DNA of 64,000 nt from positions 124,001-188,000 of the forward strand of contig NZ_JAHXSA010000003.1 of NCBI RefSeq assembly GCF_019429565.1, written 5' to 3'. The notes below the pieces were generated by a model. The model searched no databases. It was given only the letters and a program-made list of their open reading frames with translations, and was not told where the DNA came from. The DNA comes from Schaalia sp. ORNL0103 (GTDB taxonomy: Bacteria > Actinomycetota > Actinomycetes > Actinomycetales > Actinomycetaceae). Every line of letters begins with the position of its first letter. Position 1 is the stretch's first letter. Below are positions 58,365-62,407 of the stretch, piece by piece. A program made the translations under genes and the position numbers.

Positions 58365-58600
58365 CGTCCGCGCCCTCGCACGCGTGCGGCCGCTTTCCTT
58401 GCGCTCCTCCATCGACGAGGCGGTGGCTCAGTTCGCGGTCACCGCTCCGGGCCGGGCGTCTCACTGTGGGCGGCAGGATCGGGAGCAGTCATGCCTCTAT
58501 TGTCGCGGACCGCCCGCGCCCGTGCACGTATGTGCGTGGGCGCGGGCGGTCCGTTTTCCTCGCGCTGGCCTCAGTGACGAGGCCGTGGCCCGTTCACCTG
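58365..58600. repeat. Partly duplicated intergenic segment upstream of msrB, with a terminator-like stem
   Basis: The msrB promoter side (about 58347-58425) and a second stretch (about 58490-58590) share TCTATTGTCSCGS, CGTCCGCGCCC-like and GACGAGGCSGTGG words in the same order, so the region looks duplicated. The second copy contains a perfect 16-bp stem (58506-58521 with 58538-58553) followed by TTTTCC. This fills the 260-base gap between msrB and the MscS gene. Confidence 0.55.
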
Positions 58601-58606
58601 TCCCCA

Positions 58607-61600
58607 TCACTCATTGGTGGCGGGTCCTGCGTTGGAGGTCTTCTTCGCCGCTGCCTTCTTGGGAGTCGCCTTCTTGGCGGCACCCTTCTTGGCGGCGGGC
58701 TTCTTCGCGGTGGCCTTCTTGGCGGGAGCCTTCGCGTCCTTTTCAGGGGTCGCGTCGGCTACCTTGTCGGCCGCGTCGGAGGACTTTTTGGCGCCCTTCT
58801 TTGCGGTCGAGGCCTTCTTGGTGGCCGCCTTCTTTGCGGGAGCCTTCTTCGCGCCAGCCTTGGTGGAGGCCGTCTTCTTGGCGGGCTCCTTCTTCGCCGG
58901 GGCTTCCTCTTCCGCCGCAACACCCTCTGTCGCGGCGGCATCCTCAGCCTTCGCGGCCTCAGAAGCCGGCTCGGCGATGGCCGCAGCGGGCATTACGAGG
59001 GTCTCGTCCGCGGGCTCGTCGACGGCGGGCAGGACCTGCGTGGCGTCGGAGTCGAGCGCGCCGGCCTCTTCGGCCTCCACGGGATCCATGACGATGGTCG
59101 CCTCGGCGTCGGCAGTGGGTTCGTCGGCGGCGTCCTTCTGCGCAGCATCAACCTCGGGGGTCTCGACCTCGGGGGCCGAGTCCTCCGCGGGCGCACTCTC
59201 GGGGGCCACGGCCTCGTCGGTCGCGGTCTTTTCGGCCACCACAGACTCGGCGTTCTCGGCCTTCGGCTCACGCGGCTCGACGGCCGGGATCTGGCCGGTG
59301 ACGGCGCGCAGCATATCGGCCTCGGCGCCGGTGGGGGCAACGGCGGGGAAGAAGTCCATGATGGACACGCGCGCGGGCTTCACCGTGGGCGTGGGGCGTG
59401 TTTCCGCGTCGAGGCGCGCCTCTTCCGCGACCGCGTACCAGCCGGGGTGGACGGCGGGTTCGTCGGCCTCGTCCTCGGGCGCGCGCGATGCGGCCATCTC
59501 GGCGGGGGTCGGCGCGGGCGGCGGCACGAGTGCCGGCGCGATCGCCTGAACCGTGTCGGTCATGACGGGCCGACCGGTGCGCACGGGCGGGGGCACCTGC
59601 ACGGGATGTTTCACGGATGTTTCACGCGCGGGGATCGGCATGGTCTCCTGCTCGTCCGGGGAAAGTTCAACGTCCGACGAGGCCTGGGCCTCCCCCTCGT
59701 CGCCCGTTTCCTCGGGCGCGTCGGGGGCGGGTGCGCCCTCACGCTCAGCATCCTCGACGGGGGCGCTGTCCTCCTGCGAATCGGCGGCGCGCGAGTCGCC
59801 GGAATCGGCGGATGCGCCAGCGTCGGTGGCCGCGTCGGCGGGGGTCTCACCCTGCGCGGGGGCAGGCTGCGCGTCGGCGGCCTGTTCCTCAGCGGAAGCG
59901 ACATCGGCAGACTCCGCGTCGGCCTCTGGCTTCACGCCCTCGACCTGGTCGTCGACGGTTTCGGATCCGGCGGCGCCAGATTCGGGCTTCTCGTCGGCGG
60001 AATCATCTGCGACAGAATCAGCCGCGGCCTCCTTCACGGTCGCATCGTCCGCGCGCTCGGCACCCGTACCCTCCGCAGAATCGGCGGCTGCAGAATCGGG
60101 GACCGTATCCTGAGCATCCTCGGGCTCCTCGTTCTCGGGCGCCTCGTTGTCGGCAACAACCGGCTCAACGCCGACGGCTGCCAGGGCGAGGGTGGCCTCG
60201 GGGTCAAGGGCCTCGGCTTCGCGGCGCTTGTGGGCTTCGCGGCGCTCCTGGGCGCGGCGGGCCTCGGCCTCGCGCTCGGCGTAGACCTCTTCACCCGGGC
60301 CCTCGAGGGCGGCGGCGCGTTCCTCGGCTTCGGCGGAGCCGGAGAAGAAGCGCTCGCCTCGGCCGATGGAGGTGGCGGTGAGGGTCTGGGTGAGCTGCGG
60401 GTTCGCGTTGCCGGCGGCCTCGATGATCTTGCGCAGAGCGCTCTTGGAGATCACCTGGGTTTCGTCGCGGGAGGCGCTGGGGCCGCCCTCGGCGAGTTCG
60501 CGCTGGCGGTCGGCCATGGCACGGCGGCGGGCGCGCTTGGCCTTGCGGCGGGCGGCGACCATGCGCGCGGCGTGCGCGGGGTCCTTGGGAGCGGCGGGCG
60601 CGGCACCGGACGCGGAGATCGCGGAGGCGGCGCCACCCGTCGCGACGCTGGACTGCTCACCGGCCGACGCGGGCGTACCCGCGTGGGAAGCCGACGTGCC
60701 CGTGGCGGCCACGGCCTCGTTCGTGCCGGAGATCCCGGCGAGCTCGGCGGCCAGGCGCGCGATGCGTTCGCGGCTCATGTCCTGCTCGACGGTGACGGTC
60801 TGGCGCGGCTCGATGCGCTGGGCGGGGCGTGCCCACGGCTCTTCGGTGACGATCCACGCGATGATCTGCTCACGCAGGTACGCGCGCAGGTCGGAGAGGT
60901 GGCCGGAGTTCTTCGCGGAGACGAGGACCCGCACGGTGACGGTGTACTCGTCGGAGTCCGTGATCTGCACGCCCCACGTGCGACCGTCCCACAGGTCGGT
61001 GGCGGTCAGGAGCTGCTCGACCTTGGCTCGGATCAGGGTCATTGGTGCGGACCAGTCGAGTTTGAGCTCGACGGTGCCGAGCTGGGCGGCGGCACGGCGC
61101 GTCCAGTTCTCGAAGGGCGTCTGCGTGAAGTAGCGGCACGGAATGATGAGGCGGCGCTCGTCCCAGATGCGCACGACCACGTAGGAGAGCGTGATTTCCT
61201 CAACGGAACCCGTCTCATGCTTGTCGCCGGCAACCACGACGTCGCCCACGCGGATCGCGTCGGTGAAGGCCAGCTGCAGGCCGGCGAAGACGTTGCCGAG
61301 GGTCTGCTGGGCGGCGAGACCGGCGATCACCGAGATGACGCCGGCGGAGGCCAGGACGGTCGTCATGGCCTGGCGGGCGACCTCGAAGGTGCCGATGATG
61401 GCGACCACGCCCACGACGACGACGATCGACTGGGTGAGCCGGCGCAGCACCTGGGCCTGAGTCTCGAAACGGCGTGAACGCCCCTGGTCAGAATCCTGGC
61501 GAGCCTTGGCGGCGTCCTCGAAGACCCACGCGGCGGCGTACGCCATCCACGTCAGGCAGGCGAGGGCGACGACGAGCAGCACGTGCATGAGGAACGTCGT

Positions 61601-61942
61601 GATCGACGTGCCGTTCCAGTCGGACAGGTGTGGATTGACCAGCGCGATGCCGAGCCCCGCCCACGCTCCCCAGGCCGCGAAGGTGAAGTGACCCGGACGA
61701 CGCACGCGCGCCAGGATCGACGAGGCCGTGGCCGCCTTCGAGAGCGCCTTACGTGCCAGGGCGGAGAGGAGAACCGAGAGGACGATACCCACGAAGGCGC
61801 CGACGAGCGGGCCGAGGATCAGGAGGGTGATGTCGATGGTCGTGGCCACGGCGCCCTCCGCCCCGGATTGTGGGTCGGCGATCGCCCGCGTGAGGGCGTC
61901 CGAGGCCTGGGCGAGGGCACCGACTGCTGGTGTCATAGTCAT
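58607..61942 (-). CDS. MscS-family mechanosensitive channel with long disordered and histone-like C-terminus
   Basis: The 1111-residue protein begins as an MscS channel: helices at about residues 35-65, 88-105, 115-140 and 165-190. The pore helix ASAGVISVIAGLAAQQTLGNVFAGLQLAFTDAIRVGDVV (about 198-236) and the beta domain (TGSVEEITLSYVVVRIWDERRLIIPCRYF) follow. After about residue 385 comes some 600 residues of low-complexity sequence rich in Ala, Glu, Asp, Pro and Ser. The last 100 residues (about 1011-1111) are Lys/Ala/Pro-rich with repeated AKK and KKA units, like histone H1-type tails. TACCCT six bases before the ATG suggests a leaderless mRNA. MscS proteins protect from osmotic shock; the tail's role is unknown. 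Confidence 0.88.
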   Translation of the reverse strand: MTMTPAVGALAQASDALTRAIADPQSGAEGAVATTIDITLLILGPLVGAFVGIVLSVLLSALARKALSKAATASSILARVRRPGHFTFAAWGAWAGLGIALVNPHLSDWNGTSITTFLMHVLLVVALACLTWMAYAAAWVFEDAAKARQDSDQGRSRRFETQAQVLRRLTQSIVVVVGVVAIIGTFEVARQAMTTVLASAGVISVIAGLAAQQTLGNVFAGLQLAFTDAIRVGDVVVAGDKHETGSVEEITLSYVVVRIWDERRLIIPCRYFTQTPFENWTRRAAAQLGTVELKLDWSAPMTLIRAKVEQLLTATDLWDGRTWGVQITDSDEYTVTVRVLVSAKNSGHLSDLRAYLREQIIAWIVTEEPWARPAQRIEPRQTVTVEQDMSRERIARLAAELAGISGTNEAVAATGTSASHAGTPASAGEQSSVATGGAASAISASGAAPAAPKDPAHAARMVAARRKAKRARRRAMADRQRELAEGGPSASRDETQVISKSALRKIIEAAGNANPQLTQTLTATSIGRGERFFSGSAEAEERAAALEGPGEEVYAEREAEARRAQERREAHKRREAEALDPEATLALAAVGVEPVVADNEAPENEEPEDAQDTVPDSAAADSAEGTGAERADDATVKEAAADSVADDSADEKPESGAAGSETVDDQVEGVKPEADAESADVASAEEQAADAQPAPAQGETPADAATDAGASADSGDSRAADSQEDSAPVEDAEREGAPAPDAPEETGDEGEAQASSDVELSPDEQETMPIPARETSVKHPVQVPPPVRTGRPVMTDTVQAIAPALVPPPAPTPAEMAASRAPEDEADEPAVHPGWYAVAEEARLDAETRPTPTVKPARVSIMDFFPAVAPTGAEADMLRAVTGQIPAVEPREPKAENAESVVAEKTATDEAVAPESAPAEDSAPEVETPEVDAAQKDAADEPTADAEATIVMDPVEAEEAGALDSDATQVLPAVDEPADETLVMPAAAIAEPASEAAKAEDAAATEGVAAEEEAPAKKEPAKKTASTKAGAKKAPAKKAATKKASTAKKGAKKSSDAADKVADATPEKDAKAPAKKATAKKPAAKKGAAKKATPKKAAAKKTSNAGPATNE

Positions 61943-62067: not shown

Positions 62068-62106
62068 ATCTCCCGTCTTCGGACGCCAGTTCGACGGCCA
62101 AGCAGG

Positions 62107-62181
<75 letters not shown>

Positions 62182-62230
62182 CCGGTCGCTTATGTGATTG
62201 GAACAATTCAATAGGTCTTACCTGTTGTAA

Positions 62231-62304
62231 GGCCCCGTAGCGCAGTTGGTTAGCGCGCCGCCCTGTCACGGCGGAGGTCGCGGGTTCAAGTCCCGTCGGG
62301 GTCG
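62231..62304 (+). tRNA. tRNA-Asp (GTC)
   Basis: The acceptor GGCCCCG pairs with CGGGGTC, the anticodon loop CTGTCAC gives GTC, and the T-arm is GCGGGTTCAAGTCCCGT. CCA is not encoded. Confidence 0.95.
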
Positions 62305-62331
62305 CCGACCAGACCTTTTGGTTCAGGTCTT

Positions 62332-62407
62332 GGCTCTGTAGCTCAGTTGGTAGAGCGTTCGACTGAAAATCGAAAGGTCACCGGATCGACGCCGGTCGGA
62401 GCCACCA
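62332..62407 (+). tRNA. tRNA-Phe (GAA)
   Basis: The acceptor GGCTCTG pairs with CGGAGCC, the anticodon loop CTGAAAA gives GAA, and CCA is encoded. It is the last gene of the three-tRNA cluster. Confidence 0.95.

What the first reader, a model, noticed from the sequence alone, without database searches (positions are those of the whole stretch)
58607..61942. MscS channel carrying a histone H1-like Lys/Ala tail
A normal MscS core (about 385 residues) is followed by some 600 disordered acidic residues and a final 100-residue AKK/KKA-rich, strongly basic tail like those of DNA-binding histone-like proteins. This could tether the membrane channel to the nucleoid, to acidic cell-wall polymers, or to its own acidic linker as a gate. 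I know of no described MscS protein with this architecture.
Basis: partly seen in the sequence, partly recalled or inferred. Interest (0 to 1): 0.75.

Follow-up and report, generated by a model that had tools for sequence, protein, structure and literature searches.

The report
Pressure-release channel with histone-like tail
A bacterial pressure-release channel in one group of oral bacteria has gained a long, charged, probably flexible arm that ends in a lysine-rich tail like those some DNA-binding proteins use, which may tie the channel's behaviour to the state of the cell interior; this is inferred from sequence and has not been tested.

Summary
Window 58607-61942(-) is one intact 1111-residue frame: a YnaI-like MscS core (to about residue 378), a hydrophilic arm, and a 101-residue Lys/Ala tail with 30 lysines, mostly KK doublets five residues apart. 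It is not a join artefact. All 10 sampled members of one Schaalia odontolytica-group clade have the tail; 62 other complete frames from the same family, 13 from named relatives outside it and a chosen 30 long frames from the order and class lack it. The tree fits a single gain (100/99).

(1) The arm is not featureless: conserved islands (basic box, FSGS box, acidic T-x-x-[ILM] motifs, a ~120-residue clade island) alternate with fast-evolving acidic spacers; the FSGS box and T motifs are far more widespread than the tail. (2) Acidic spacers and basic tail occur together (arm net charge -44 to -110, against a median of -9 in 66 relatives).

The same genome's topoisomerase I carries the same kind of lysine repeat; its HU does not. 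I propose a kinase-addressable arm whose polycationic end pairs with its own acidic spacers and exchanges onto nucleic acid or anionic lipid. No function was tested. New variant of a known kind.

The parts
58607..61942 (-). MscS-like channel gene, 1111 aa plus stop
60809..61942 (-). Membrane and cage core, residues 1-378 (most hydrophobic 19-residue stretches at 40-58, 112-130, 171-189, 192-210)
   Evidence: hydropathy; best PDB matches E. coli YnaI (residues 153-313, E 1.3e-9)
61097..61303 (-). MS_channel_2nd beta domain, residues 214-282
60485..60574 (-). Basic box HAARMVAARRKAKRARRRAMADRQRELAEG, residues 457-486 (a helix is inferred, not predicted)
   Evidence: residues 457-490 net +8, pN/pS of 455-490 0.17; a basic cluster in 42 of 66 relatives, 13.4 expected from shuffles
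60446..60466 (-). DETQVIS threonine motif (T495), residues 493-499
60269..60364 (-). FSGS/GPGEE box GRGERFFSGSAEAEER...GPGEE...AERE, residues 527-558
   Evidence: FSGS part in 51 of 66 relatives and 9 of 10 clade members, about 0 expected from shuffles; FSGS plus a following [AST]GP in 36 of 66 and 3 of 10
59678..60145 (-). Hypervariable acidic spacer 1, residues 600-755
   Evidence: pN/pS 0.71, low conservation
59288..59650 (-). Clade-specific conserved island, residues 765-885 (QETMPIPARETSVKHPVQVPPPVRTGRP...HPGWYAVAEEARL...VSIMDFFP), includes T767
   Evidence: pN/pS 0.27
59108..59275 (-). Hypervariable acidic spacer 2, residues 890-945
   Evidence: pN/pS 0.72
58988..59047 (-). Paired threonine motifs DATQVLP (T968) and DETLVMP (T981), residues 966-985
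58610..58912 (-). Lys/Ala tail, residues 1011-1111, 30 K, net +20, KK doublets mostly 5 residues apart; DNA has degenerate 15-bp repeats
58506..58553 (.). Strong inverted repeat just after the stop codon (about 20 pairs); the T run lies on the + side only

Best explanation
This is a genuine MscS-type channel (family shown; tension gating inferred) whose cytoplasmic end is a layered, probably disordered regulatory arm. The older layer, shared by most relatives sampled, is a basic box, acidic T-x-x-[ILM] motifs and an FSGS box; most likely the threonines are phosphorylated by PknA/PknB-type kinases and docked by FHA proteins (inferred). The new layer arose, as far as the tree shows, once, in the S. 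odontolytica clade: long acidic spacers, a conserved island and a lysine-repeat tail. I propose that the tail is a polycationic latch. It pairs loosely with the acidic spacers of its own heptamer and can exchange onto nucleic acid or anionic lipid when salt, crowding or phosphorylation of the arm changes, so that gating or placement follows the ionic state of the cytoplasm. Shown here: sequence, conservation, co-occurrence, clade restriction. Inferred: disorder, phosphorylation, FHA docking, latch, effect on gating.
For: Tail in 10 of 10 clade members with net charge +17 to +25 despite lengths from 60 to 109 residues. In six of the ten tails aligned, 20 of the 30 invariant columns are lysines. 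Tail pN/pS 0.49, below the acidic spacers (0.71, 0.72) (nine members, 36 pairs). Acidic arm and tail co-occur: arm net charge -44 to -110 in 10 of 10 (L063 only partly readable), against median -9 (range -48 to +11) in 66 relatives. Counting each threonine once, acidic T-x-x-[ILM] occurs 79 times against 25.8 expected in the 66 relatives, in 56 of them; serine control 24 against 27.5. Followed by Pro or Asp: 27 against 3.5, in 25 of 66. The genome has 4 FHA domains and 6 near-full kinase domains plus one partial; one kinase has PTEVMAP between kinase domain and membrane segment. Published M. tuberculosis PknA-dependent sites favour acidic residues before the Thr, Pro at +2 and Leu/Val at +3 (PMC7164672, passages).
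Against: The acidic arm outweighs the tail about two to five times in charge, so a one-to-one latch is not balanced. Arm and tail were gained on one branch, so their association rests on one evolutionary event. Other spacings also exceed expectation: T+2 in the 66 relatives (47 against 25.5), T+1 (18 against 8.7) and T+4 (15 against 8.5) in the clade, so the motif signal is not fully specific. The motif was first seen in this protein and then tested, and the sequences are related. Published PknA sites also favour a basic residue at +4, which none of the six arm motifs here has; the PknB-depletion motif was not significant. The PknB-like kinase's ATEVLPAAG lacks the acidic residue my motif demands, and the FHA protein's TEATILRLAP does not fit at +3, so the same-genome look-alikes are thin.
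Confidence: 0.38

Rival explanations
1. Nucleoid tether: the tail binds chromosomal DNA (or RNA at the membrane) like the lysine repeats of TopA and HupS, anchoring the channel cage to the nucleoid so that tension, placement or DNA compaction are coupled.
For: The same genome's TopA ends in an AKK-type five-residue repeat. In Streptomyces TopA such repeats keep the enzyme from falling off DNA (PMC7398561, passages), and HupS carries a lysine-repeat domain likened to histones (PMC11229371, passages). The tail resembles HC2 and H1-like models weakly (16.4 and 16.0 bits).
Against: Both H1-like hits are far below the curated cut-offs (40 and 80 bits). The adjacent arm carries about two to five times more negative charge than the tail carries positive, which should compete with DNA. 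The tail was seen in one clade only, so it is not needed for the channel in its relatives. HU of this genome lacks such a tail.
Confidence: 0.22
2. Phospho-scaffold: the arm's T motifs recruit FHA proteins to the channel or to growth zones, and the tail is a minor accessory.
For: T-x-x-[ILM] motifs and the FSGS box are spread far more widely than the tail. Two sister members have a tail of only 60 residues and keep TQVLP-type motifs.
Against: No direct evidence of phosphorylation or FHA binding; motif signal not fully specific; the tail is retained in 10 of 10 clade members.
Confidence: 0.2
3. Near-neutral expansion: tandem duplication of a 15-bp unit in GC-rich DNA made a tail that is tolerated, with no specific role.
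For: The tail DNA includes degenerate 15-bp tandem units (70-75% matches); tail pN/pS (0.49) is the highest outside the spacers; length varies from 60 to 109 residues.
Against: Lysines are conserved while neighbours drift in the six tails aligned; net charge stays +17 to +25 in 10 of 10; no loss seen in the clade; other window ORFs are only 1.3% lysine.
Confidence: 0.2

Closest known systems
MscCG of Corynebacterium glutamicum (MscS-like channel with long C-terminal extension)
   Same: Actinobacterial MscS-type channel with a large C-terminal extension; in MscCG deletions in the extension change glutamate export (PMC7835871, PMC6110860; passages)
   Different: MscCG's extension holds a fourth transmembrane helix and a periplasmic loop; none is seen here. 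No lysine-repeat tail is mentioned in the passages read.
YnaI, E. coli low-conductance MscS paralogue
   Same: Closest solved structures by sequence, over residues 153-313
   Different: The YnaI and YnaI-chimera chains in that list have 307-419 residues, too short for such an arm.
Lysine-repeat C-termini of actinobacterial TopA and HupS
   Same: AKK-type repeats at the C-terminus; TopA of this same genome has one with five-residue period
   Different: Those are soluble DNA-binding proteins; here the tail sits on a membrane channel behind a strongly acidic arm.
Histone H1-like HC2 / Burkholderia H1-like protein
   Same: Lys/Ala-rich basic composition over about 100 residues
   Different: Sub-threshold scores; no common ancestry shown.

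Membership tests
MscS superfamily | MS_channel_2nd beta domain above the curated cut-off | tested here: met
   49.2 bits against 20.2; 55.1 bits in the genome search
MscS superfamily | Tension-gated conductance | not testable with these tools
   needs electrophysiology
MscCG-type channel | Fourth transmembrane helix in the C-terminal extension | tested here: not met
   maximum 19-residue hydropathy after residue 378 is 1.18
Histone H1-like (HC2 / hist_H1_lk_Burk) | Model score above the curated cut-off | tested here: not met
   16.4 of 40 bits; 16.0 of 80 bits
Actinobacterial lysine-repeat tail (TopA/HupS type) | C-terminal repeats of KK doublets | tested here: met
   13 KK doublets, 8 of 12 spacings of 5 residues; TopA of the same genome has the same kind of repeat
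Actinobacterial lysine-repeat tail (TopA/HupS type) | Binds DNA | not testable with these tools
   needs a binding assay
PknA-type phosphothreonine site | Acidic residue just before Thr and hydrophobic residue at +3 | tested here: met
   seven threonines in the protein, six of them in the arm (T495, T584, T767, T949, T968, T981); four are followed by Pro or Asp
PknA-type phosphothreonine site | Basic residue at +4 | tested here: not met
   read from the sequence: +4 is S at T495, A at T584, P at T767, D at T949, P at T968 and T981; published preference
PknA-type phosphothreonine site | Phosphorylated in vivo and bound by an FHA domain | not testable with these tools
   needs phosphoproteomics and binding assays

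The most novel reading that the evidence does not exclude
The channel is a direct mechanical or electrostatic link between membrane tension and the nucleoid: its histone-like tail holds DNA (or its own acidic arm) depending on salt and kinase signalling, so that turgor, channel gating and chromosome state are coupled by one protein.
Probability: 0.15. Interest if true: 0.88.

Novelty: new variant of a known kind. Interest (0 to 1): 0.55.

Why it matters
If the tail works like TopA lysine repeats, a mechanosensitive channel would carry a nucleic-acid-type binding end, which I did not find described in the searches made (in an open-licence library; one search listed 20 of 2,850). Separately, the widespread T-x-x-[ILM] and FSGS motifs suggest an untested link between actinobacterial MscS channels and Ser/Thr kinase/FHA signalling (a joint search gave no paper), testable by phosphoproteomics and truncation.

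Tried and rejected
Frameshift or join artefact: rejected (intact frame; channel plus tail in nine other genomes). Binding to cell-wall polymers: set aside, because MscS C-termini are cytoplasmic (established knowledge) and there is no late membrane segment. MscCG type: rejected on the missing fourth helix. Membership in H1-like families: not met.

That the tail is unique in the genome: I first read (tail as protein query in the own genome, only itself at E <= 0.1) that way, but TopA was then found to carry the same kind of repeat, so one search is not a reliable negative and the claim is dropped. HU of this genome has no such tail. How many further proteins of the genome have one is unknown.

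Motif counts: my first count (and the motif figures) counted a threonine twice when both preceding residues were acidic; one search showed this, and repeats the counts with each threonine once. The report uses; the enrichment is somewhat smaller (3.1-fold instead of 3.3-fold in the 66) and the conclusion stands. Because the kinase look-alikes turned out weaker than first written, confidence was lowered from 0.40 to 0.38 and the neutral rival raised from 0.18 to 0.20.

A paralogue of the clade-specific island in the own genome: only a chance-level second hit, E 0.08. The class survey fetched 20 regions chosen by long frames; a relative of the core was recognised in 10 of 20 and none had the tail; the other 10 say nothing. 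Structure prediction could not be run, so no fold comparison was made.

Rows dropped before counts: 25 duplicate or truncated loci, L072 (cut by contig end), L017, L066 (run of N), L068 (joined to a PurF-like stretch), L020-L025 (short Nonomuraea extensions), and L073, L086, L112 (extension too short). The 66 left are 57 genomes of the window's GTDB family and 9 named Cellulomonas/Cellulosimicrobium records, some of these 9 closely related and three (L009, L011, L013) cut by the end of the sequence held.
Full report
WHAT IS THERE. The frame at 58607-61942 on the minus strand is intact and 1111 residues long. Residues up to about 378 are an MscS-type channel: Pfam MS_channel_2nd at 214-282 with 49.2 bits, best solved relatives E. 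coli YnaI. It is the only MscS-family hit in the genome at E <= 0.001; the genome also has an MscL. After residue 378 no membrane-like segment follows (maximum 19-residue hydropathy 1.18). The last 101 residues hold 30 lysines, no arginine, and 13 KK doublets, with 8 of 12 spacings exactly five residues. The DNA of the tail includes two arrays of degenerate 15-bp units, 70-75% matches.

WHERE IT OCCURS. The core was found in 206 of 213 genomes of the window's family (one genome of the same genus, G168, had no match and cannot be placed). I read C-termini from 88 non-duplicate loci. Ten of them, the window and the nine genomes with core identity of about 85% or more, end in the lysine tail, with 9-13 KK doublets in the last 100 residues. 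The other 78 have at most 2: 62 complete frames of the same family (two of them, L066 and L068, oddly built), and 16 named Cellulomonas, Cellulosimicrobium and Nonomuraea records, of which 13 are complete and three run off the sequence held. Of 20 long frames chosen from other families of the order, 0 have it; of 20 fetched from the wider class, 10 were recognised as relatives and 0 of these have it. On a tree of 40 cores the tail-bearing rows form one clade (100/99 support, one change). By equal contig lengths the clade includes records titled Schaalia odontolytica FDAARGOS_732, Actinomyces sp. HPA0247 and A. bouchesdurhonensis, so the window comes from the S. odontolytica group (inference).

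In an alignment of nine clade members (L063 left out of the scoring for its N run) conserved islands alternate with fast acidic spacers: a basic box (457-486), DETQVIS (493-499), an FSGS/GPGEE box (527-558), a 580-595 stretch, a ~120-residue island (765-885) and paired DATQVLP/DETLVMP motifs (966-985). Pooled pN/pS over 36 pairs: core 0.18, basic box 0.17, TQV plus FSGS 0.25, island 0.27, T-motif pair 0.39, tail 0.49, spacers 0.71 and 0.72. Alignment of low-complexity stretches is uncertain, so the tail and spacer values are approximate.

OLD AND NEW LAYERS. The comparison set is 66 relatives outside the clade: 57 of the same family and 9 named Cellulomonas/Cellulosimicrobium records. The FSGS part of the box is in 51 of 66 and in 9 of 10 clade members (L063, with its N run, is the exception), against about zero in shuffled extensions; the fuller form with a following [AST]GP is in 36 of 66 and 3 of 10; a basic cluster is in 42 of 66 against 13.4 expected. 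Counting each threonine once, acidic T-x-x-[ILM] occurs 79 times against 25.8 expected in the 66, in 56 of them (68 against 23.9 in the 57 of the family); in the clade 54 against 8.3. The serine control is 24 against 27.5 in the 66 and 1 against 8.1 in the clade. Neighbouring spacings are mixed: in the 66, +1 is 23 against 25.7, +2 is raised (47 against 25.5), +4 is 18 against 25.1, +5 is 26 against 25.0; in the clade +1 (18 against 8.7) and +4 (15 against 8.5) are raised (all). The form followed by Pro or Asp occurs at four threonines of this protein, and four times in 17,241 residues of 40 other mechanical ORFs of the window. T-x-V-[LM]-P sites reappear in channels of other families, for example TPATQVLPP and VDDTRVLPA. 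The lysine tail and the strongly acidic arm are new to the clade: arm net charge is -44 to -110 in 10 of 10 (the -44 is L063, only partly readable), against a median of -9 and range -48 to +11 in the 66.

LINKS TO KNOWN BIOLOGY. M. tuberculosis PknA-dependent sites favour acidic residues at -1 and -3 to -6, Pro at -1 and +2, Leu/Val at +3 and a basic residue at +4; the PknB set did not reach significance (PMC7164672, passages). The arm's motifs fit the acidic and +3 preferences, not the basic +4. The genome encodes four FHA domains and six near-full plus one partial kinase domain. One kinase carries PTEVMAP between kinase domain and membrane segment; the PknB-like one (name inferred) carries ATEVLPAAG, which lacks an acidic residue directly before the threonine; an FHA protein carries TEATILRLAP, which does not fit at +3. 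These look-alikes were not tested for enrichment. The tail matches the lysine repeats of actinobacterial TopA, which keep that enzyme on DNA (PMC7398561, passages), and the lysine-repeat domain of HupS (PMC11229371, passages); TopA of this same genome ends in such a repeat while its HU does not. MscCG shows that a C-terminal extension can matter in an actinobacterial MscS channel (PMC7835871 and PMC6110860, passages), but with a different, membrane-spanning design. An E. coli MscS-FtsZ interaction has been reported (PMC4440785, title and start of abstract only).

HOW IT PROBABLY WORKS. I favour a regulatory arm with kinase-addressable motifs and, in this clade, a polycationic end that pairs loosely with its own acidic spacers and can exchange onto nucleic acid or anionic lipid (confidence 0.38). 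A pure nucleoid tether, a phospho-scaffold in which the tail is minor, and a near-neutral repeat expansion remain open. The arm's excess negative charge argues against free DNA binding by the tail; the steady tail charge (+17 to +25) and conserved lysines argue against neutrality. No step of function was shown here.

LITERATURE. I found no description of an MscS channel with such a tail in the searches of the held open-licence library: no paper; 8 listed; 1 listed; 20 of 2,850 listed. I read only search listings and passages, and that library lacks most subscription papers. The primary TopA lysine-repeat paper was not held.

Noticed in passing
   Followed up: no
L068 (G157:C1:2145588-2151730): The channel frame runs straight into about 300 residues that look like an amidophosphoribosyltransferase (recalled resemblance); real rearrangement or assembly join not decided.
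   Followed up: no
window 58506-58553: Very strong inverted repeat (about 20 pairs) between the channel gene and a gene that looks like msrB (recalled); the T run is on the plus side only.
   Followed up: partly
own genome C3:216709-220476 (L117, L122): An FHA protein lies about 3 kb from a Ser/Thr kinase, roughly 30 kb from this channel.
   Followed up: partly
residues 527-558 of the window protein and relatives: The FSGS box is conserved in 60 of 76 channels examined, yet no Pfam or NCBIfam model matched this part of the window protein at E <= 1.
   Followed up: partly
window 62106-62407: tRNA-Glu, tRNA-Asp and tRNA-Phe genes lie just upstream of the channel gene, on the opposite strand.
   Followed up: no
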